Below, one piece after another: positions 27,716-54,450 of a stretch of 64,000 nt of DNA. Each line of letters opens with the position of its first letter. The stretch's first letter is position 1. Location of the stretch: NCBI RefSeq assembly GCF_030818485.1, contig NZ_JAUTAJ010000003.1:62001-126000 (forward strand), written 5' to 3'. Position numbers and translations under genes: made by a program. Source of the stretch: Pseudoroseomonas cervicalis. Its GTDB lineage: Bacteria; Pseudomonadota; Alphaproteobacteria; Acetobacterales; Acetobacteraceae. Under the pieces are notes generated by a model, which saw only the letters and a list, made by a program, of their open reading frames with translations, had not been told where the DNA came from and searched no databases.

Positions 27716-27729
27716 TCACGGCGCCGTGA
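27716..27729. promoter_or_regulatory. 14-bp palindrome in a divergent promoter region
   Basis: TCACGGCGCCGTGA is a perfect palindrome between the small membrane-protein gene (minus strand, start 27597) and the lyase gene (plus strand, start 27811). Its place makes it a candidate operator for one or both genes. Confidence 0.35.
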
Positions 27730-27810
27730 GCCGCCCGCCAGCTTCCGCATTCCCGGCCAGGCGCTAGGCTGGCGCGCCGCGCCGGCGCGGCCGAAGCGGG
27801 AGGAAGCACC

Positions 27811-29400
27811 ATGTCGAGATTCGGACCCTGCCTGGGCGCGCTGCTGCTGGGCTGCATGCCCCTGCTGGCCGCCCAGGCGCAGCCTGCGCAGAGCCCCGGA
27901 CAGAACCGCATGACCCAGCCCGCCCCCGCCGCCGCGCCCGCCCCGGCCGCGCAGCCCCAGGCGCCGCGGCGCGACGAATTCTTCTGGCTGGGCGAGATCA
28001 ACAAGGCCAGCGCCGTCATCAACACCGGGCAAGGGCTGCTCGACCGCGCGCTCGCGCCGCGCATCGCCGCCGGGCTGCAGCGCGTGCTGCAGGCGGGCGA
28101 CCAGCCGGGCGGCCGCCGGCCCACGCTGGTCATCACCTTCGAGCCGCTGCTGATCGAGGCCGCCGGCGTGGAGGCCACGCTGCTGCATGCCGGGCGCTCC
28201 AGCCAGGACATGCTGTCCACCGTGCGCGCCGCCATGCTGCGCGACGCGCTGCTGGCGCTGTCCGACCAGCTGCGCCGCACCACCGCGACCATGCTGGCCC
28301 TGGCCGAGCGGCACCGCGAGACCGCCGTGCCCAACTACACCAATGGCGTCGCGGCGCAGCCCAACAGCTATGGCCATTACCTGCTCGGCCATATCGCCGG
28401 GCTGCAGCGCGATGCGGAACGTCTGCAGCAGGCCTTCGCGCGGCTCGACCGCTCGCCCATGGGCACCACCGTGCTGAACGGCACCAGCTGGCCACTGGAC
28501 CGCGAGCGCATGGCGCGCGCGCTCGGCTTCCCGGCCGTGGTCGACAACGCCTATGACGCGGCGCAGATCGCGGCGGCCGAGATCCCCACCGAGCTCGGCG
28601 CCGTCACCACCGGCATGGCGCTGCATGCCGGCGCCTTCATCGAGGATGTGATGACGCAATATGCGCAGCCGCGTCCCTGGATCCTGCTGCAGGAGGGCGG
28701 CGGCAACACCTATGTCTCCAGCGCCATGCCGCAGAAGCGCAATCCCGGCCTGCTGAACGACACGCGCGGCCAGGCCTCCAACGTCATCGCCCTCGGCTTC
28801 GGCCGCGTGCTGCAGGCGCACAACATCCCGCCCGGCATGAACGACGCCAAGAGCGTGCGCGACAACACCGCGCTGCTGGCCGCCGCGGCGCGCATGCTGG
28901 AAAGCTGGGACCGCATCCTGGGCGCGCTGGTGATCAGCCCCGAGCGGGCGCTGGAGGAGCTGAACAGCGACTGGACCGCCTCGCAGGAGATCGCCGACAT
29001 CCTGATGCGCCAGCATGGCCTGCCCTTCCGCGTCGGGCATCATTTCGCCTCGGCCATCGTCGACCACGCCAAGGCGCAGGACATCCGCCCCAGCGACTTC
29101 CCCTACGCCGAGGCGCAGCGGATCTATGCCGAGACGCTGCGGCATGAGATGGGCACGGCCGATGGCCAGCTGCCGATGAGCGAGGCCGCGTTCCGCGCCG
29201 CCCTCGACCCCGCCGCCATCATCCGCAACCGCGCCACCTCCGGCGGGCCGCAGCCGGCGGAGATGACCCGCATGCTGGCCGCGGCGCGGGAGAATCTGGC
29301 GGCGCAGCAGCGCTGGACCGAGGAACGCCGCGGCCGCATCGACGCGGCGCTGGCCGCGCTGGATGGCGAGTTCCGCAAGCTGCTGGCGCAGGCGAACTGA
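27811..29400 (+). CDS. Exported lyase of the fumarase/argininosuccinate lyase superfamily
   Basis: The 529-residue product begins with a Sec-type signal peptide (MSRFGPCLGALLLGCMPLLA, with AQAQ as probable cleavage region) and a Pro/Ala-rich linker to about residue 50. The rest is a full helical lyase: HAGRSSQDMLSTVRAAMLRD, LNGTSWPLDRERMA, and the superfamily signature SSAMPQKRNPG near residue 303, with the catalytic serine loop. The closest named relative by motif is argininosuccinate lyase, but true argininosuccinate lyases are cytoplasmic, so this is probably a periplasmic enzyme acting on another fumarate- or dicarboxylate-type adduct. LLLGC also resembles a weak lipobox. No pathway partner is adjacent. 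Confidence 0.8.
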   Translation: MSRFGPCLGALLLGCMPLLAAQAQPAQSPGQNRMTQPAPAAAPAPAAQPQAPRRDEFFWLGEINKASAVINTGQGLLDRALAPRIAAGLQRVLQAGDQPGGRRPTLVITFEPLLIEAAGVEATLLHAGRSSQDMLSTVRAAMLRDALLALSDQLRRTTATMLALAERHRETAVPNYTNGVAAQPNSYGHYLLGHIAGLQRDAERLQQAFARLDRSPMGTTVLNGTSWPLDRERMARALGFPAVVDNAYDAAQIAAAEIPTELGAVTTGMALHAGAFIEDVMTQYAQPRPWILLQEGGGNTYVSSAMPQKRNPGLLNDTRGQASNVIALGFGRVLQAHNIPPGMNDAKSVRDNTALLAAAARMLESWDRILGALVISPERALEELNSDWTASQEIADILMRQHGLPFRVGHHFASAIVDHAKAQDIRPSDFPYAEAQRIYAETLRHEMGTADGQLPMSEAAFRAALDPAAIIRNRATSGGPQPAEMTRMLAAARENLAAQQRWTEERRGRIDAALAALDGEFRKLLAQAN

Positions 29401-46534: not shown

Positions 46535-46662
46535 GACGTGGCCAATGGGGCCGCATCGGCCGCAGCGCGACGGCGGGCACAGGCAATGAGCCGGGGCGAA
46601 TAGGCATCCCCGCCGCCGCTGCGCTAGGATCACGGCTTCGCCAGGATGCAGGAGCAGGCGGC

Positions 46663-46974
46663 ATGCGGCCCGACGATGTCATGGACAGTTTCCGCCGCCT
46701 CTTCGCGGCGCGGCCGGAGACGGCGCAGGGCCTGGCCGAGGCGCGCGACCTCGACAGCGCCGCCGAGCTGCTGGACCGCATCGGCGCGCGCCACGGCATC
46801 GCCACCAGCGCCGCCGAGATCCGCGGCTATGTCCGCCGCCTGCGCGAGGAACTGTCGCGCGGTGAGCTTTCGACCGAGCAGCTGGACGGCATCGCCGCCG
46901 GCGGCACCGTGCCCGGCGGCAGCGACCTGGCGCTGATGCTCTCCGTCCTGGGACAGGACAGCGCGGTGCCGTGA
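46663..46974 (+). CDS. Nif11-like leader peptide precursor with GG cleavage site
   Basis: The 103-residue product has the layout of a Nif11-type leader. A helical stretch, MDSFRRLFAARPETAQGLAE, is followed by ELLDRIGARHGIATSAAEIR and the conserved end ELSRGELSTEQLDGIAAGG. The double glycine falls at residues 80-81, as in peptides cut by C39 peptidases during export. The remaining 22 residues begin TVPGGSDLALML; they contain Ser and Thr but no Cys. The start ATG 46663 follows GGAG. Its stop overlaps the GTG start of the HlyD-like gene (GTGA), so precursor and exporter are coupled. No modifying enzyme gene lies beside it. The exported product is inferred; its activity is unknown. Confidence 0.8.
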   Translation: MRPDDVMDSFRRLFAARPETAQGLAEARDLDSAAELLDRIGARHGIATSAAEIRGYVRRLREELSRGELSTEQLDGIAAGGTVPGGSDLALMLSVLGQDSAVP

Positions 46975-48230
46975 GCGGCAGCGCCCCGCTCACCCGCCCG
47001 CCCAGCCCGGAGCAGCTGGACCGCGCGCTGCGCGTGGTGCCGGGCCTGGCCTGGCTGTCGCTCTGGCTGCTGCTGGCGCTGATCCTGGCCGGGCTGGTCT
47101 GGAGCCTGCGCTCCACCGCCGCGGTGAAGACCCAGGCCCAGGGCGTGCTGCTGAGCGCCGGCGGCGTCGGCGATGTGGTGGCCCCCGCCCCGGGCCGGCT
47201 GCTGCGCCTGCTGGCCAGCCCCGGCGAGGCGGTGGCCGAGGGCCAGCTCGTCGCGCTGCTCGACCAGCCGGAGCTGGAGGCCGACCTCTCCCGCCGCCGC
47301 ACCGAGGCCGCCAGCCTGGAGGAGCAGGAGGCGCGGGTGCGCCGCTTCCTCGAGGGCGAGGCCGAGGCGCGCCGCCGCCTGGCCGAGGCGCGGCAGCAGG
47401 CCTTGCGCGCCCGCATCGCCTCGCTCGCCGCGCTCGAAGGCACGATGGGCGAGATGGCCTCGATCCAGCAGGGGCTGTTCGGCCGCGGCCTCGGCACGCG
47501 GGAGCGTTTCCTGGCCGCCCAGCAGCAATGGCAGGAGGTGCGCAGCCAGCGCAGCGAGGCCGAGAACAGCCTGGTGCAGATCGCTGCCGAGACCGAGGCG
47601 GAGCGCATCCGCGCCGAGCGCGAGCTGCTCGATCTCGGCATGCGCCGCGCCGCCGTGGCGCGCGAGATCGCCTGGACGGAGGGCGAGCTGGCCCGCCGCG
47701 GCCGCGTGCTGGCCCCCGCCCCGGGCATGCTGGTCGAGCAGGTGGCCAATCCGGGCGAGCTGGTCACCGCCGGCGCGCCGGTGCTGCGCTTCCTGGCCGG
47801 CCGCGCCGACGAGGCCGAGGGCCTGGTCGCCCTGCTCTATGTCCCGCCGGCCGATGGCAAGCGGGTGCAGCCCGGCATGCGGGTGCAGGTGATCCCCTCC
47901 ACCGCCCGGGTGCAGCGCGACGGCTTCATCGAGGGCGAGGTGGAGAGCGTCTCCGCCATCCCGGCGACGCGGGAGGGCATCCTGCGCACGCTGAAGAATG
48001 GCGCGCTGGTCGACCAGCTGATGCAATCCGGCCCGCCGGTGCTGGCGACGGTGCGGCTGGCGCGCGACCCGGCGGCGCCGGGCGGCTATCGCTGGTCCAC
48101 CGGCAGCGGCAAGGCGCTGGCGATCGGCAGCGGCACGCTGGCCGAGGGGCGCATCGTCGTCGACGACATCCCGCTGATCGCGCTGGTGCTGCCGGAGGCG
48201 GAGCGCCTGCTGGGCTGGATCGGGCTCTGA
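46971..48230 (+). CDS. NHLM-type bacteriocin/RiPP exporter, HlyD-like periplasmic adaptor
   Basis: The 419-residue product starts at GTG 46971. A short cytoplasmic segment (PSPEQLDRALRVVPGLAW) precedes one membrane helix (LSLWLLLALILAGLVW). Then come the biotinyl-lipoyl-like half (GVLLSAGGVGDVVAPAPGRL), a long coiled coil of Ala/Glu/Arg-rich helices (about residues 100-240), and the second half-motif (GRVLAPAPGMLVEQVANPGE) with a beta-barrel domain (VQPGMRVQVIPSTARVQRDG). This matches the HlyD proteins of NHLM secretion systems, which link paired ABC exporters to the outer membrane. It overlaps the leader-peptide gene and is one base from the next ABC gene. Confidence 0.87.
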   Translation: MSGSAPLTRPPSPEQLDRALRVVPGLAWLSLWLLLALILAGLVWSLRSTAAVKTQAQGVLLSAGGVGDVVAPAPGRLLRLLASPGEAVAEGQLVALLDQPELEADLSRRRTEAASLEEQEARVRRFLEGEAEARRRLAEARQQALRARIASLAALEGTMGEMASIQQGLFGRGLGTRERFLAAQQQWQEVRSQRSEAENSLVQIAAETEAERIRAERELLDLGMRRAAVAREIAWTEGELARRGRVLAPAPGMLVEQVANPGELVTAGAPVLRFLAGRADEAEGLVALLYVPPADGKRVQPGMRVQVIPSTARVQRDGFIEGEVESVSAIPATREGILRTLKNGALVDQLMQSGPPVLATVRLARDPAAPGGYRWSTGSGKALAIGSGTLAEGRIVVDDIPLIALVLPEAERLLGWIGL

Positions 48231-48231
48231 G

Positions 48232-50424
48232 ATGCAGGGCGTGATCGCCGGCGCCGCCGCCTCGCCCCAGGACGCCGCGCGGCGCCGCGCGCCCAGCATC
48301 CTGCAGCTGGAGGCGGTGGAATGCGGCGCCGCCTGCCTGGCCATGGTGCTGGCAGCGCATGGGCGCTGGGTGCCGCTGGCCGAGCTGCGCGTGGCCTGCG
48401 GCGTCTCCCGCGATGGCAGCAAGGCCGGCAACATCGTGCGCGCCGCGCGCCGCTATGGGCTGGAGGCGAAGGGCTTCCGGCATGAGCTGGCGGCGCTGAA
48501 GGCGCTGCCGAAGCCCGCCATCCTGTTCGTCAACCTGAACCATTTCGTGGTGCTGGAGGGTTTCGCGCGCGGCCGCGCCTGGATCAACGACCCGGCCGGC
48601 GGCCGCCGCGCCATGACCGAGGCGGAGCTGGACGAGATCTATTCCGGCATCGTGCTCACCTTCGAGCCGGGTCCGGATTTCGCCCCCGGCGGCGCCCCGC
48701 CGGCGCTGGCCGGGCGGCTCTTCGCCTGGCTGCGCGGCGGCGGCGAAAGCGCGCTGGCCTATGCGCTGGCCAGCGGCCTGGGCCTCGCCCTGATGGCGAT
48801 CCTGCTGCCCGGCTTCAGCCGCATCTTCATCGACCAGTATCTGGTGGAGGGGCAGCAGGATTGGGTGGGCTGGCTGCTGTTCGCCATGCTGGCGGCGGCG
48901 CTGGCGCAGGGCGGGCTGGTCTGGCTGAAGGGCAGCATCACGCACCGCCTGGCCACCTCGGTCGCGCTGCGCGCCGGGGCGCGCTTCGTCTGGCGCATGC
49001 TGCGCCTGCCCATCCCCTTCTTCACCCAGCGCTATGCCGGCAGCATCGGCAGCCGGGCGGAGCTGGCGCCGCTGCTCGGCCAGCACGCGGCGAAGGAGCC
49101 GGTGGTGCTGCTGGTCGAAGGCGCCTGCGTCGCCGTCTATCTCGGTGTCATGCTGCTCTATTCGCCGCTGCTGACGGCGGTGGCCGCCGCCATGGCGCTG
49201 GGCAACCTCGTGCTGTTCCTGGCGGCGCGGCGCGGCGTCGAGGAGCGCGAGCAGAAGGCGGCGCTGGACCAGGTGAAGCTCGGCGCCAAGACCATGCTCG
49301 GCCTGCAGATGATCGAATCGCTGAAGGCCACCGGCACCGACGGGCCCTTCTTCGAGGCCTGGGCCGGCCAGCACGCGCTGGTGGTGGGGCAGCAGCAATC
49401 GGTCGGCCGCGTCGCCGCTTTGTTCGCGACGCTGCCGGATTTCCTGGCCCAGGCCGGGGCGGCGCTGGTGCTGGTGCTGGGCGGTTTCCTGGTGATGCAG
49501 GGCCAGCTGACGCTGGGCACGCTGGTCGCCTTCCAGCTGCTGCAGGCCGGCATGACCCTGCCGCTGCGCGCGCTGATGCAGAACGCGGTGCAGATGCAGG
49601 CGGCGCGCGGCACGGTCGAGCAGATGGAGGATGTGCTGCTGCACCCTGAGGCGCCGGAATTCGCCGCCCCCGCGCCGGAGGAGGGCGCGGCGCGGCGCGA
49701 GCAGCGGCTCTCCGGCGCGCTCTCCCTGCAGGGGGTCAGCTTCGGCTACAGCCCGCTGGAGCCGGCGATGATCGAGGATTTTTCCCTGGATTTGGTGCCG
49801 GGGGCGCGGGTGGCGCTGGTCGGCCCCTCGGGCAGCGGCAAATCCACCGTGGGGCGGCTGGTCACCGGCCTATTCCCGCCCTGGTCCGGCGAGATCCGCC
49901 TGGATGGCCGGCCGATCGGCAGCCTGCCGCGCGGGCTGCTGCGCGATTCGCTCGCCGTGGTCGACCAGGAGATCGTGCTGTTCGAGGGCAGCGTGCGCGA
50001 CAACATCGCCCTCTGGGACGAGACCATGCCGGAGGCCGCCATCATCGCCGCGGCGCGCGATGCGGCGATCCATGACGACATCATCGCCCGCCCCGGCGGC
50101 TATGACGGCCGGGTCGAGGAGGGCGGGCGCAATTTCTCCGGCGGCCAGCGGCAGCGGCTGGAGATCGCCCGCGCCCTGGTGAACTCGCCGAGCCTGCTGG
50201 TGCTGGACGAGGCGACCAGCGCGCTGGACCCGATCGCCGAGAAGCAGGTGATGGACAATCTGCGCCGCCGCGGCTGCGCCTGCCTGATCATCGCCCACCG
50301 CCTGAGCACGGTGCGCGATTGCGACGAGATCATCGTCATGCATCGCGGCAAGGTGCTGGAGCGCGGCACGCATGAGGCGCTGCTGGCCGCCGGCGGTCCC
50401 TATAGCCGGCTGATCGAATCCTGA
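48232..50424 (+). CDS. NHLM-type ABC exporter with N-terminal C39 peptidase domain
   Basis: The 730-residue protein has a C39 peptidase domain (about residues 20-145) with Gln25, the nucleophile Cys31 in VECGAACLAMVL, the catalytic His in NHFVVLEGF and Asp in INDPAGG, so it should cut after the double glycine of a leader peptide. Six membrane helices follow (about 160-440; for example ALAYALASGLGLALMAILLP). The ATPase domain (about 480-725) has Walker A GPSGSGKSTVG, signature FSGGQRQRLEIARAL and Walker B LLVLDEATSALD. Layout and neighbours match the first ABC subunit of NHLM export systems. The last base of its stop is the first base of the next gene's start. Confidence 0.92.
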   Translation: MQGVIAGAAASPQDAARRRAPSILQLEAVECGAACLAMVLAAHGRWVPLAELRVACGVSRDGSKAGNIVRAARRYGLEAKGFRHELAALKALPKPAILFVNLNHFVVLEGFARGRAWINDPAGGRRAMTEAELDEIYSGIVLTFEPGPDFAPGGAPPALAGRLFAWLRGGGESALAYALASGLGLALMAILLPGFSRIFIDQYLVEGQQDWVGWLLFAMLAAALAQGGLVWLKGSITHRLATSVALRAGARFVWRMLRLPIPFFTQRYAGSIGSRAELAPLLGQHAAKEPVVLLVEGACVAVYLGVMLLYSPLLTAVAAAMALGNLVLFLAARRGVEEREQKAALDQVKLGAKTMLGLQMIESLKATGTDGPFFEAWAGQHALVVGQQQSVGRVAALFATLPDFLAQAGAALVLVLGGFLVMQGQLTLGTLVAFQLLQAGMTLPLRALMQNAVQMQAARGTVEQMEDVLLHPEAPEFAAPAPEEGAARREQRLSGALSLQGVSFGYSPLEPAMIEDFSLDLVPGARVALVGPSGSGKSTVGRLVTGLFPPWSGEIRLDGRPIGSLPRGLLRDSLAVVDQEIVLFEGSVRDNIALWDETMPEAAIIAAARDAAIHDDIIARPGGYDGRVEEGGRNFSGGQRQRLEIARALVNSPSLLVLDEATSALDPIAEKQVMDNLRRRGCACLIIAHRLSTVRDCDEIIVMHRGKVLERGTHEALLAAGGPYSRLIES

Positions 50425-53351
50425 TGGCCGAGACGCTGCTCCCGCCCGGCCTCGGCACGCCGCGCGCCATCGCCGGCAACACGCCGCTGCTGCTCGACCG
50501 CCCCGACCAGGCGCTGCTGGTGCTGGAGGGCGAGGTCGAGCTCTTCCTGGTGCCGCTGGAGGAGGGGCGCCCCGCCGGGCTGCGCCGGCATCTCTTCGGC
50601 CTGGGCCGCGGCGCGCTGCTGTTCGGCGTCGATGGCGCGGCGGAGGGGGTGGGGCTGCTGGCGGTCGGCCATGTCGGCACCAGGGTGGCCGAGCTGCCGC
50701 CGGGCGCGCTGCAGGGCTGGGCCGCCGACCCGGCGCGCCGGGCGGGGCTGGAGACGGCGCTGGAGCGCTGGGTGCAGGGGCTGACCGGCGCCATGGTGCG
50801 GCCGATCCAGCCGCGCCCGCGGCTGGAGACGCTGTTCCAGCCCGGCGAGACCGCCCGCCCCGCCGCCGGCCGCCGCGCCGGCCCCGCGCGCGGCATCGCC
50901 TGGGCGCGGCCGGAGGGCGCCGCCTTCTATCTCGACACCGGCGAGGTGGCGGCGGGCGAGACCCTGCCGCTGGCCGCCGGCGCCTGGCTGGAGCAGCCGC
51001 AGGACGCCCCCCTGCCCAGCCTGACCACCGGCGCGGCGCTGGAGCGGGGCCTGGCCTGGGCGGGGCTGGCGACGCTGCACCGGCTGATGCTGGAGATCCT
51101 GCCGCTGAACCTGATGCTGGCGGCGGCCGACGAGGCCAACCGCCAGCGCGCCCGGCACCATTCCGACCGCGAGGCCGGCGAGGCGGCGCTGCAGCGCCTG
51201 GCCGAGCCGCTGGCCGGCGCCCGCCCCTTCCGCCCCCCGGTGGAGGGGGAGCAGCCGCTGCTGCGCACCGTCGCCGCCATCGCCAGCCATCTCGGCCTGG
51301 CGCTGACCCCGCCGCCGCCGCGCCGCGAGCAGGGCGAGATCCGCCCCGCCACGCTGGGGGAGATCCTGCGCGCCAACCAGCTGCGGGCACGCGGGCTCAG
51401 GCTGCAGCCGGGCTGGTGGGGGCAGGATGCCGGGCCGCTGCTGCTGCTGCGCCAGGGCGATGGGCGGCCGCTGGCGCTGCTGCCGCGGCCGCTGCGCGGC
51501 GGCTGGCAGCTCTACGACCCGGTCGAGGAGAAGCTGGCGCCGCTTTCCGCCCGCGCCGCCGCGGCGCTGCGCGGCGAGGCCTTCCAGCTCTACGCGCCGC
51601 TGCCGGCGCGTCCGCTGCGCGGCCTCGACATCGGCGGCAACCTGCTGCGCTGGGCGAGGAGCGACGCGCTGGCGGTGGTGGGCCTCGGCGCCGCGGCCGG
51701 GCTGCTCAATCTCGGCGTGCCGCTGGCCACCGGCGTGCTGGTGGACAGCATCATCCCCGCCTATGACCTGCCGCGGCTGCTGGAGATGGCGCTGGTGCTG
51801 GGCCTGCTGGCGCTGGTCATGCTGGTGCTGCGCTACGCCGTGCAGATCGCCGCGCTGCGCATCGAGGGGCGCGCCGGCACCCGCCTGCAGGCGGCGGTGA
51901 TCGACCGGCTGCTGCGCCTGCCCATGGGCTTCTTCCGCGGCCATTCCGCCGGCATGCTGGCCAAGCGGGCGCTGGCCGTGCAGGTGATCGAGCGCGCCGT
52001 CGGCGGCGCGCTGATCGGCAGCCTGCTGACCGGGCTGCTCTCGCTGCTCTCGCTCGGGCTGATGGCCTGGTATTCCTGGCGGCTGACCCTGGTGGCGCTG
52101 GCCATGCTGGTGCTGCTGCTGGGCGTCACCCTGCTGCTGGGCTGGCTGCGCATCCGGCATGAGCGCGAGGTGGTGAGCCTCGGCGGCGAAAGCGCCGGGC
52201 TGCTGCTGCAGCTGGCCAGCGGCATCGCCAAGCTGCGCCTGGCGGCGGCCGAGCAGCGCGCCTTCCTGCGCTGGGCAAGGCTGCAGGCGAAGCTGGCGCG
52301 GCAGCGTTTCCTGGCCGAGCAGATCGGCACGCTGAGCGAGCTGTCCGGCACCCTGGCCCTGCCGCTGGCCACCGCCGCGCTGTTCCTGGCGATCCACTGG
52401 ATGGGGCTGGGCCATGCCGGCACGGGCACGGGCGCCGGCCAGCAGGGGCTGGCGCTGGGCGCGCTGCTGGCCTTCCTCAACGCCTTCAGCCAATCCCTGT
52501 CCGGCATCGCCGGGCTGGCCGGCGCGGCGGTGCAGATCGCGGCGCTTCGCCCGGTCTACGCCCATGCCGCGCCGATCCTGGAGACGGTGCCGGAGACCGG
52601 CGAGCACCGCGCCGATCCGGGCACGCTGAGCGGCGCGCTGGAGGTCAGCCGCGTCAGCTTCCGCTACGGCCAGGACGGGCCGCCGCTGTTCGACGATCTG
52701 TCACTCGGCATCGCCGCCGGCGAATATGTCGCCATTGTCGGCCCCTCGGGCAGCGGCAAGTCGAGCCTGCTGCGCCTGCTGCTGGGCTTCGAGCAGCCGC
52801 AGGCGGGCGCCATCCTCTATGACGGGCAGGATCTGAACGGGCTGGACCCGCAGGCGCTGCGCCGGCAGCTCGGCGTCGTGCTGCAGGGCGGGCGGCTGAT
52901 GCCGGGCAGCCTGCTGGAGAACATCCTCGGCCCCAATCTGCACCTGTCGGAGCGCGAGGCCTGGGCGGCGGCGGAACAGGTCGGCCTGGCCGAGGATCTG
53001 CGCGCCATGCCGATGGGCATGCAGACCGTGATCTCCGATTCCGGCAGCACCCTCTCCGGCGGCCAGGTGCAGCGCGTGCTGCTGGCCCGCGCCGTGGTGG
53101 CGCGGCCGCGCATCCTGCTGCTGGACGAGGCGACCAGCGCGCTCGACAACCGCACCCAGGCCCAGGTGACGGAGAGCCTGGACCGGCTGAACGCGACGCG
53201 CATCGTCATCGCCCACCGGCTCTCCACCGTGGTGCGGGCCGACCGCATCCTGGTGCTGCGCGAGGGGCGCATCTGCGAGAGCGGCCGCTATGAGGAGCTG
53301 ATCGCCGCCGGCGGTTTTTTCCGCGCCCTGGCCGAGCGGCAGCTGCTCTGA
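50424..53351 (+). CDS. NHLM-type second ABC exporter subunit with large N-terminal domain
   Basis: The 975-residue protein is the second ABC subunit of NHLM systems. Residues 1-130 resemble a cyclic-nucleotide-type beta barrel (PDQALLVLEGEVELFLVPLE, LGRGALLFGV). Residues 130-400 form an extra region that includes a degraded peptidase-like segment (LRTVAAIASHLGLALTPPPP, and LRGGWQLYDPVEEKLAPLSA). Six membrane helices follow (about 410-700), then the ATPase domain with GPSGSGKSSL near residue 773, signature LSGGQVQRVLLARAV and LLLDEATSALD. The N-terminal region has no C39 catalytic cysteine, so cleavage is left to the first subunit. It is translationally coupled to the gene before it. Confidence 0.9.
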   Translation: MAETLLPPGLGTPRAIAGNTPLLLDRPDQALLVLEGEVELFLVPLEEGRPAGLRRHLFGLGRGALLFGVDGAAEGVGLLAVGHVGTRVAELPPGALQGWAADPARRAGLETALERWVQGLTGAMVRPIQPRPRLETLFQPGETARPAAGRRAGPARGIAWARPEGAAFYLDTGEVAAGETLPLAAGAWLEQPQDAPLPSLTTGAALERGLAWAGLATLHRLMLEILPLNLMLAAADEANRQRARHHSDREAGEAALQRLAEPLAGARPFRPPVEGEQPLLRTVAAIASHLGLALTPPPPRREQGEIRPATLGEILRANQLRARGLRLQPGWWGQDAGPLLLLRQGDGRPLALLPRPLRGGWQLYDPVEEKLAPLSARAAAALRGEAFQLYAPLPARPLRGLDIGGNLLRWARSDALAVVGLGAAAGLLNLGVPLATGVLVDSIIPAYDLPRLLEMALVLGLLALVMLVLRYAVQIAALRIEGRAGTRLQAAVIDRLLRLPMGFFRGHSAGMLAKRALAVQVIERAVGGALIGSLLTGLLSLLSLGLMAWYSWRLTLVALAMLVLLLGVTLLLGWLRIRHEREVVSLGGESAGLLLQLASGIAKLRLAAAEQRAFLRWARLQAKLARQRFLAEQIGTLSELSGTLALPLATAALFLAIHWMGLGHAGTGTGAGQQGLALGALLAFLNAFSQSLSGIAGLAGAAVQIAALRPVYAHAAPILETVPETGEHRADPGTLSGALEVSRVSFRYGQDGPPLFDDLSLGIAAGEYVAIVGPSGSGKSSLLRLLLGFEQPQAGAILYDGQDLNGLDPQALRRQLGVVLQGGRLMPGSLLENILGPNLHLSEREAWAAAEQVGLAEDLRAMPMGMQTVISDSGSTLSGGQVQRVLLARAVVARPRILLLDEATSALDNRTQAQVTESLDRLNATRIVIAHRLSTVVRADRILVLREGRICESGRYEELIAAGGFFRALAERQLL

Positions 53352-53361
53352 ACGGCCCGGC

Positions 53362-54450
53362 CTAGAGCCGGCGGATCCAGCCCGTCGTCGCCGGCGCCTT
53401 CTCCTTGCCGCCCTCCTTCGCGGCCTCGGCGGGCGGTTCGGGGCGCAGCGGGCCGCCGGCCGGGCGGGTGCCGCCGGCCAGCCGCGCCTCGCGCGGGGAC
53501 ATGCCGAAGGCCTCGCGGAAGCTGCGGCTGAACGCCGCCTCGTTGCGGAAGCCCCAGCCATAGGCGATCTCGGCGATGCGCCGGCGCTCCGGCACCGCCG
53601 CGGTGATCTCCTGGAAGCAGCGCTCCAGCCGGCGCCGGCGGATATAGGAGGCGACGCCGCCATAGGGCTCGAACAGCCGGTACAGCGTCGGGCGGGAGAC
53701 GCCGAATTGCCGCGTCAGCATCTCGGGCGAGAGCTGCGGCGCCGCCAGGTTGCTTTCGATGAAGCGGCGGATCAGCACCAGGGAGGGCGTGTGCACCGGC
53801 GCATGCCCCTCCTGCCGCGCCGCCAGCACCGGCGTGGCGCAGGCGGCGACCAGCATGGCGGTGGCCTGCAGCAGCGGCTGCGCCTCGGCCTGGGTCAGCT
53901 GGCCGCCGCATTCCTGCAGGCCCACCAGATGCTCGCCCAGCAGCCGGCCGAGCGGCGTGCCGCCCTCCACCACCACGCCATGCAGCGCCTCGGGCTTGGG
54001 CACCAGCGGCGCCAGCGAGGCGCGCGGCATCACCAGGGTGATATTCTCGAAATCCTCGGCGCTGGTGTGCAGCGTCTGCGCCATGTCGAGGATGCAGACA
54101 TCGCCCGGCCGCACGGTGATCGGCAGTTCCCCGGCCACGCCCTGATAGCCGCCCTGGCGGTAGAGCTGGATCAGGAAATGATCGACGCCGGTGCGGGCGA
54201 TGGTGAAGGAGGAGCGGCGGAAGATCTGCGCGCTGGCGGCGATGCGGCCGATCACCACCCCGCCCAGATCATGGCTGTCGACGGCGACGCGGAAATGGTC
54301 CATCGCCTCCGGCGTCGGCAGCGCCACGTCGAAGAACACGGCGGCGATCTGCCGCCAGGTCCAGAAAGCCTGTTCGGGGGAGCCGGCCATCGCCCCATCG
54401 AACTGCATGGCGGCGGCTTGGGCAGGCGGGGCGGCAGGGGCATCCGGCAT
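53362..54450 (-). CDS. AraC family transcriptional regulator
   Basis: The 362-residue product has an N-terminal AraC-binding-like ligand domain (VVIGRIAASAQIFRRSSFTI, PGDVCILDMAQTLHTSAEDF) and a C-terminal double helix-turn-helix (LSPEMLTRQFGVSRPTLYRL, RRLERCFQEITA, RIAEIAYGWGFRNEAAFSRS, FREAFGMSPREAR). It is convergent with the exporter operon, ending 10 bases beyond the second ABC gene. A 9-bp inverted repeat lies about 80 bases upstream of its start. It may control either the exporter locus or the peptide-import operon behind it; orientation does not decide. Confidence 0.88.
   Translation of the reverse strand: MPDAPAAPPAQAAAMQFDGAMAGSPEQAFWTWRQIAAVFFDVALPTPEAMDHFRVAVDSHDLGGVVIGRIAASAQIFRRSSFTIARTGVDHFLIQLYRQGGYQGVAGELPITVRPGDVCILDMAQTLHTSAEDFENITLVMPRASLAPLVPKPEALHGVVVEGGTPLGRLLGEHLVGLQECGGQLTQAEAQPLLQATAMLVAACATPVLAARQEGHAPVHTPSLVLIRRFIESNLAAPQLSPEMLTRQFGVSRPTLYRLFEPYGGVASYIRRRRLERCFQEITAAVPERRRIAEIAYGWGFRNEAAFSRSFREAFGMSPREARLAGGTRPAGGPLRPEPPAEAAKEGGKEKAPATTGWIRRL

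What the first reader, a model, noticed from the sequence alone, without database searches (positions are those of the whole stretch)
46663..53351. Nif11-like leader peptide coupled to an NHLM exporter with no modifying enzyme
A 103-residue Nif11-type precursor ending in IAAGG plus a 22-residue tail overlaps (GTGA) a HlyD adaptor gene, followed by a C39-peptidase ABC exporter and a second ABC exporter, all translationally coupled. NHLM systems normally accompany lanthipeptide, cyclodehydratase, radical-SAM or similar enzymes. Here the flanking genes are glycerol kinase and an AraC regulator. The locus may export an unmodified small peptide, or use an enzyme encoded elsewhere, and its product is undescribed to my knowledge.
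Basis: partly seen in the sequence, partly recalled or inferred. Interest (0 to 1): 0.82.

Follow-up and report, generated by a model that had tools for sequence, protein, structure and literature searches.

The report
One peptide exporter, many scattered precursors
A Roseomonas-like bacterium carries a peptide exporter that has no peptide-modifying enzyme beside it; its likely cargo is a dozen or so small, cysteine-free peptides whose genes are scattered around the chromosome, often share the exporter's promoter pattern and, within the genus, occur almost only where this exporter does.

Summary
Window 46663-53351 is an operon: a 103-aa small gene, HlyD, C39-peptidase ABC exporter and second ABC exporter. 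All three export proteins pass NCBI's NHLM cut-offs. The small protein matches no Nif11 model, but its five-member ortholog family is a remote homologue of Nif11 leaders. The literal GG is not conserved; the cut is probably after IAAG, leaving 23 residues.

The same genome holds 15 Nif11-type genes outside the operon, 13 with a glycine cut site and 8-39-residue tails. Among 17 congeneric genomes, such genes (37) occur in exactly the five that have this exporter; one other genome has a single copy without a cut site. The five form one clade, so this may be a single gain. A bipartite promoter pattern, found post hoc, precedes 16 of 31 precursor or exporter units against 2 of 225 other genes. The 32 readable tails contain no Cys in 714 residues; LanC and YcaO were not found in these five genomes. 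Best reading: a trans-acting exporter that clips and secretes a dispersed family of probably unmodified, often amphipathic peptides. Export, cleavage and activity are inferred. New variant of the known N11P/NHLM kind.

The parts
46588..46630 (+). shared bipartite promoter pattern GAG[AC]-N31..33-CTAGNNT; -10-like TAGGAT at 46625-46630, 32 nt before the ATG
   Evidence: pattern found by eye, then counted: 15 of 41 precursor/operon upstream regions vs 2 of 225 other genes, 250 nt; 16 of 31 transcription units, 300 nt, background again 2 of 225 at 300 nt
46663..46902 (+). Nif11-like leader (80 aa, M..IAAG) of the operonic small protein
   Evidence: hhalign to dispersed Nif11 leaders prob 95.7, E 9.8e-9, 0 of 150 column-shuffled decoys as high
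46903..46971 (+). predicted 23-aa mature tail GTVPGGSDLALMLSVLGQDSAVP; similar hydrophobic core ending in LG[QR] in the orthologs
   Evidence: cut site inferred from the alignment, not shown
46971..48230 (+). NHLM HlyD-type adaptor (membrane fusion protein)
   Evidence: TIGR03794 276 bits, cut-off 156
48232..50424 (+). NHLM C39-peptidase/permease/ATPase exporter (ABC1), peptidase motifs ECGAAC, NHF and NDP present
   Evidence: TIGR03796 929 bits; C39 alignment
50424..53351 (+). NHLM second permease/ATPase (ABC2) with about 275 N-terminal residues outside the TIGR03797 model
   Evidence: TIGR03797 801 bits, residues 276-974
53362..54408 (-). AraC-family regulator next to the operon, also called in G154 and G162; candidate regulator of the shared promoter (inference only)
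   Evidence: Pfam HTH_18, AraC_binding_2; synteny by eye

Best explanation
The operon is the shared export station of a dispersed peptide system. ABC1, with its C39 peptidase, recognises Nif11-type leaders, cuts after the [AG]G at the end of a L[DE]-x-[VILF]-x-[AG]G motif, and with ABC2 and HlyD secretes the short C-terminal tails. Its substrates are the Nif11 precursors encoded at scattered, partly syntenic sites in the chromosome, plus probably the operon's own 103-aa Nif11-like protein. No modification is needed: the dispersed tails are Cys-free, low in Ser/Thr, aromatic-containing and often amphipathic, like unmodified class II bacteriocins or secreted signal peptides. Exporter and many precursors are expected to be switched on together by an activator that binds about 30 nt upstream of a TANNNT -10 box. 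Shown by computation: exporter family, leader homology, co-occurrence within the genus, shared promoter pattern, no LanC or YcaO match in these genomes, tail composition. Inferred: recognition in trans, cleavage, secretion, co-regulation, lack of modification, biological role.
Against: The five exporter genomes form one clade in a glycerol-kinase tree of 13 genomes (95/95), so the co-occurrence may be one event. The promoter pattern was found by eye on these same sequences after an unbiased dyad search gave no clear winner, so its counts are optimistic; 13 of 31 units lack even the relaxed form, including the G159 operon. Dispersed Nif11 genes also occur in three genomes of genus g4, whose exporters I could not search and whose stretches lack the pattern. 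G000 has two other NHLM-type exporters that could take some substrates. P0001 itself matches no Nif11 model, and its orthologs in G154, G162 and G159 have one Cys in the tail. Three genes in the five genomes lack a cut site. SPASM radical-SAM proteins occur in G154 and G162 (not G000, G152, G159); other RiPP enzymes (ATP-grasp, B12-radical SAM, cupin, epimerases) were not searched.
Confidence: 0.6

Rival explanations
1. The exporter serves only the 103-aa protein beside it; the dispersed Nif11 genes belong to some other pathway and co-occur because the clade inherited both.
For: The small gene is in 5 of 5 exporter loci and overlaps HlyD in the window; the five genomes are one clade; two other NHLM-type exporters exist in G000.
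Against: Promoter pattern shared between operon and many dispersed genes, not seen upstream of exporters B and C; B and C sit beside other, longer GG-leader proteins; congeners with only B- or C-like exporters lack Nif11 genes.
Confidence: 0.15
2. The 103-aa protein is not a precursor but an accessory or regulatory Nif11-like domain protein of the exporter, kept in one copy, while the dispersed genes are the true substrates.
For: Its leader changes less (dN 0.035 and 0.034) than its tail (0.097 and 0.186) in two pairs; it matches no leader model, and one of five orthologs has a weak hit to a three-helix-bundle domain, NF046112 E 0.0086; GG not conserved; one copy per operon.
Against: The [AG]G site and a similar tail are kept in orthologs; it aligns with precursor leaders through the cut site. 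Compatible with the main model apart from the fate of this one protein.
Confidence: 0.35
3. The peptides are modified by an enzyme of a class not searched here, encoded elsewhere, as the single ProcM modifies many prochlorosin precursors.
For: N11P precursors are usually described with modifying enzymes (Haft 2010, passages and one section read); SPASM proteins in G154 and G162; not every enzyme class was searched.
Against: No LanC in 17 genomes and no YcaO in the five; no SPASM in G000, G152, G159; no Cys and 13% Ser+Thr in tails; no such enzyme recognised by eye beside the precursor sites read.
Confidence: 0.2
4. Ordinary leftover: an exporter whose cluster lost its enzyme and is decaying.
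For: No enzyme in the cluster.
Against: Complete four-gene operon also in G154 and G162; in G152 ABC2 is interrupted by an N-run and G159's contig ends after ABC1, so these two cannot be judged. C39 motifs intact; dN below dS in the small gene; tandem of five Nif11 genes in G000.
Confidence: 0.05

Closest known systems
Nif11-derived peptides (N11P, TIGR03798) with the NHLM three-gene exporter (TIGR03794/03796/03797), Haft, Basu and Mitchell 2010, PMC2887384 (passages and one section read)
   Same: Same leader family, same three-gene exporter, large paralogous precursor families, glycine cut site ending family-wide similarity
   Different: Haft et al. [quoted passage not shown] here tails have no Cys, the host is a Roseomonas-type Acetobacteraceae, and LanC and YcaO were not found
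Prochlorosins of picocyanobacteria (PMC10783134, passages read)
   Same: Nif11-family leaders with hypervariable tails and many precursors
   Different: A single promiscuous ProcM lanthionine synthetase is the shared trans factor there; here the only shared trans factor seen is the exporter
Cyanobacterial bacteriocin clusters with C39 exporters (PMC3140520, passages read)
   Same: C39 ABC exporter, ABC without peptidase and HlyD, with N11P precursors nearby
   Different: Precursors there were sought within 20 kb of the clusters; here all but the operonic one in G000 lie elsewhere in the chromosome
C39 peptidase-containing bacteriocin transporter of PDB 4ry2 (the name PCAT1 is recalled)
   Same: Full-length alignment of ABC1 residues 21-727, 260.6 bits
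   Different: Here HlyD and a second ABC protein are added

Membership tests
NHLM exporter (TIGR03794/03796/03797) | all three subunits above NCBI cut-offs in one operon | tested here: met
   276/156, 929/853, 801/709 bits
NHLM exporter (TIGR03794/03796/03797) | C39 peptidase domain with Cys, His, Asp motifs | tested here: met
   PF03412 9.9e-32; ECGAAC, NHF, NDP in the alignment; that these are the catalytic residues is recalled
N11P / TIGR03798 leader_Nif11: dispersed genes | leader matches the TIGR03798 or PF07862 model | tested here: met
   21 of 21 leaders match TIGR03798 at E<=10, not all above its cut-off (member 1: 30.0 vs 32.3); 6 of 7 PF07862 matches in G000 marked over the cut-off, one of them only with its neighbours in the frame
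N11P / TIGR03798 leader_Nif11: dispersed genes | glycine cut site then variable tail | tested here: met
   of 37 genes in the five genomes 32 have a readable site (GG, AG or GA); 3 lack one, 2 run into N
N11P / TIGR03798 leader_Nif11: dispersed genes | tail rich in Cys, Gly, Ser (as described in 2010) | tested here: not met
   0 Cys; Ser 8%, Thr 6%, Gly 13% of 714 residues
N11P / TIGR03798: operonic P0001 | matches TIGR03798/PF07862 | tested here: not met
   no match of P0001 to either model at E<=10; none of 5 family members to TIGR03798
N11P / TIGR03798: operonic P0001 | homology to Nif11 leaders by profile comparison | tested here: met
   hhalign 95.7%; score 44.6 vs decoy maximum 15.2; without the cut-site motif 20.5 vs 14.7, probability only 23.9%
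Lanthipeptide (LanC-domain enzymes) | LanC-like enzyme in the genome | tested here: not met
   PF05147 0 of 17 genomes at E<=0.001
TOMM / azole peptide | YcaO cyclodehydratase in the genome | tested here: not met
   PF02624 1 of 17, G155, which lacks this exporter
SPASM radical-SAM RiPP | SPASM radical-SAM protein accompanying the precursor | tested here: not met
   none in G000, G152, G159; one each in G154 and G162, on contigs other than those of their precursors
Unmodified class II-type bacteriocin | unmodified secreted antimicrobial peptide | not testable with these tools
   needs mass spectrometry and activity assays

The most novel reading that the evidence does not exclude
A genome-wide regulon of unmodified secreted peptides: one NHLM exporter operon and a dozen dispersed Nif11-leader genes, many under one promoter type, with tails diversified site by site. 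Nif11 leaders would here serve purely as export tags for a combinatorial linear peptide repertoire, without any modifying enzyme.
Probability: 0.5. Interest if true: 0.75.

Novelty: new variant of a known kind. Interest (0 to 1): 0.62.

Why it matters
Genome mining for peptide natural products commonly starts from modifying enzymes and looks near them. This system would be missed twice: no such enzyme is linked to it, and the precursors are not beside the exporter. If right, it shows that Nif11 leaders can work as export tags alone, gives a promoter pattern for finding further members, and yields a list of 32 predicted short peptides (8-48 residues), most small enough to synthesise and test directly.

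Tried and rejected
Curated models for the small protein: nothing above cut-off; the only Pfam hit was TopoV_HHH, 0.018 and below its gathering score.

Ortholog search with P0001 alone in 150 family genomes gave one weak outside hit, G050 (5.1e-4), rejected because it lies inside a called 601-aa gene (taken by eye for a glycoside hydrolase).

De novo dyad searches in upstream regions gave no clear winner over shuffles or permutations; the bipartite pattern was spotted by eye and then counted. A first single-box version scored 7 of 36 vs 4 of 171.

Inverted-repeat test around the GAG box: best symmetry 0.39 vs mean 0.24, suggestive of ATTG-N10-CAAT, not pursued.

Odds for the 5-of-17 co-occurrence (1 in 6188, my arithmetic, in a note) are not used as evidence because the five are one clade.

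L070 (G159, 371-aa ORF) was dropped as a false Nif11 match. Gene calling failed for L038 and L144, ending the scripts with an error; the G163 kinase locus (L144) was still used in the tree. The gene caller also failed on most of L026; L026 and L150 were read only as ORF lists. In the PDB search with dispersed leaders the best total score was a TAL-effector repeat protein (7.3e-15, no single stretch passing), and more such repeat proteins followed; I took these for repeat artefacts. A PDB search with the operonic family gave only weak hits, best 0.0095.
Full report
What is there. Window 46663-53351 (+) is a four-gene operon: a 103-aa small protein, an HlyD adaptor, a C39-peptidase ABC exporter and a second ABC exporter. 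Stops and starts overlap at the first and third junctions and are 1 nt apart at the second. The three large proteins exceed NCBI's cut-offs for the NHLM exporter, and the C39 motifs are intact. The flanks are an FGGY-type kinase gene and an AraC regulator; I recognised no modifying enzyme among the genes called at 36000-64000.

The small protein. Alone it matches no Nif11 or NHLP model; its five-member family gives only weak hits. Orthologs were found in the four other genomes that carry this exporter (G152, G154, G159, G162), upstream of HlyD, 66-91% identical. A profile of 21 dispersed Nif11 leaders ranks the five orthologs among the top six of 2005 sequences (2000 shuffles; one shuffle scored between them). 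hhalign aligns the two families through the cut site at 95.7% probability. None of 150 column-shuffled decoys came near (44.6 vs 15.2), and the part before the cut-site motif still beats the decoys, though at 23.9% probability (20.5 vs 14.7). The site reads IAAG|G, IAAG|V, IAAG|Q and twice VSGG|, so [AG]G is conserved and GG is not. The leader changes less than the tail between close pairs (dN 0.035 vs 0.097, and 0.034 vs 0.186). Three of the five orthologs have one Cys in the tail. Whether this protein is a precursor or an accessory part is open.

The dispersed precursors. The window's genome (unnamed, G000) has seven Pfam Nif11 matches at E<=0.001 outside the window and 15 genes with the sensitive profile at E<=1e-5. 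Thirteen have a cut site and tails of 8-39 residues, for example VIRNFPYP, GWLWDRILATFNPHKNG and GLWDILNSVAAKAVPFLKAP; two lack the site. They sit at nine other places in the chromosome besides one tandem of five, where one of the two site-less genes lies. Two sites recur in all five genomes: beside lpxB and an oligopeptide ABC transporter, and beside a GlnQ-type ABC transporter (gene names by eye). No RiPP enzyme was recognised by eye in the stretches read around them (about 20 kb for six fetched places in G000, mostly 4-7 kb for the other sites). Several pairs keep the leader and change the tail (leader 93%, tail 27%; 83% and 25%; 73% and 20%), others keep both (85% and 85%; 87% and 90%; 86% and 72%), so tail variability is not uniform.

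Link to the exporter. Seventeen genomes of the genus are held. The window-type ABC1 (>=75% identity) is in five. Pfam Nif11 matches at E<=0.01 are in the same five and no others (one of the G159 matches is false). With the sensitive profile at E<=1e-5 those five have 15, 6, 5, 4 and 7 genes, G107 has one without a cut site, and the other 11 have none. G157 and G150 carry other NHLM-type exporters and no Nif11. The caveat is that the five form one clade in a glycerol-kinase tree of the 13 genomes that have the gene (95/95), so this may be a single gain. In 397 family genomes at E<=1e-4, eleven have a match (G162, a known positive, is not among them and was apparently not drawn): five from the genus and six from three other genera. 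Three g4 genomes have one dispersed gene each, G190 has one match plus a weaker second peptide right after an NHLM ABC2 that is cut by the contig edge (603 bits, cut-off 709), and G243 and G208 have one each, the G208 match without a cut site. In the 150-genome family sample, 12 have a TIGR03796 match at E<=1e-150, 5 of them over the cut-off, and only G000 a Pfam Nif11 match at E<=0.001. NHLM-type exporters in this family therefore often serve other substrates.

Shared promoter. GAG[AC]-N31..33-CTA[GTC]NNT lies within 300 nt of 16 of 31 transcription units (precursors and exporter operons of five genomes), 18 with a relaxed -10 (the N-broken G152 gene at C498:1101667 was left out of the 31). 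Among 225 other genes of 100 aa or more with an upstream gap in the same loci and two further genomes there are 2, with either 250 or 300 nt and with either form. By genome group the gene-level counts are 8 of 22 vs 2 of 138 and 7 of 19 vs 0 of 70. Of 25 distinct hits in the scanned loci, 17 precede a precursor or this operon. The operon promoter carries the strict form in G000, G152 and G154, the relaxed form in G162 and none in G159. The pattern was noticed by eye on these same sequences after unbiased searches gave no clear winner, so the numbers are optimistic. Exporters B and C of G000 lack it, as do the precursor beside its own exporter in G162 and the stretches from other genera.

Names and literature. 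Contig lengths identify G152 with Pseudoroseomonas cervicalis ATCC 49957 and G159 with Roseomonas sp. GC11 (inferred). Haft et al. 2010 (PMC2887384; passages and one section read) defined the leader family and exporter and described LanM and TOMM partners and Cys/Gly/Ser-rich tails. PMC3140520 and PMC10783134 were read as passages, as was PMC6959600 on Legionella. Full-text searches for nif11 with Acetobacteraceae and for Roseomonas cervicalis with bacteriocin returned no paper. Looser searches (listings and abstract starts seen, 25 of 52, 20 of 68, 20 of 20 and 6 of 6) showed none whose title or abstract start describes such a system in this group. The library is open-access only.

Verdict. 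Secretion, cleavage, co-regulation and function remain inferences.

Noticed in passing
L024 8363-16030 (G000 C4 about 3607400-3615000): A second NHLM-type exporter (850 bits, just under the TIGR03796 cut-off) with two GG-leader proteins of 145 and 235 aa (LPEDALE-x-VHGG) on the opposite strand.
   Followed up: partly
L025 5140-13969 (G000 C4 about 1976600-1985500): A third NHLM-like exporter (622 bits) beside a 731-aa protein that begins with a short GG leader (LPEDVLRRIVGG) and has no Pfam match at 0.01; L060 (G150) has a similar set by eye.
   Followed up: partly
L057 10219-11647 and L058 3730-5079 (G162, G154): RTX calcium-repeat proteins (Pfam confirmed for one), one per locus with an N-terminal GG leader ([LI]xSExLxKVVGG), beside a C39-containing NHLM-type exporter: RTX proteins apparently tagged for N-terminal cleavage.
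   Followed up: partly
L027 8788-10186 and L028 6070-7525 (G106, G015): NHLM exporter with a short acidic GG peptide and a 327-362-aa protein that looks ATP-grasp-like by eye (the L027 copy has no Pfam match at 0.01); possible graspetide-like cluster.
   Followed up: partly
L167, L168, L169 (genus g4) and G162 C22, G154 C175, G000 C4:426714: Nif11 peptides from two genera share a tail motif like N..[STK][SN]?P[FY][DN], so one tail type seems conserved across genera rather than hypervariable (by eye).
   Followed up: no
L171 1265-2735 (G190): Two Nif11-like GG peptides with long Gly/Ala-rich hydrophobic tails right after an NHLM ABC2; they look like pore-forming unmodified bacteriocins.
   Followed up: no
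window 27728-27770: The strict promoter pattern also lies upstream of a 529-aa ORF at 27811 (lyase-like by eye); chance or a further regulon member.
   Followed up: no
G000 C4:361266, G152 C498:1045004 and G107 C95:32871: Nif11 domains without any glycine cut site; the first two look like orthologs with similar C-termini and may have a non-precursor role.
   Followed up: no
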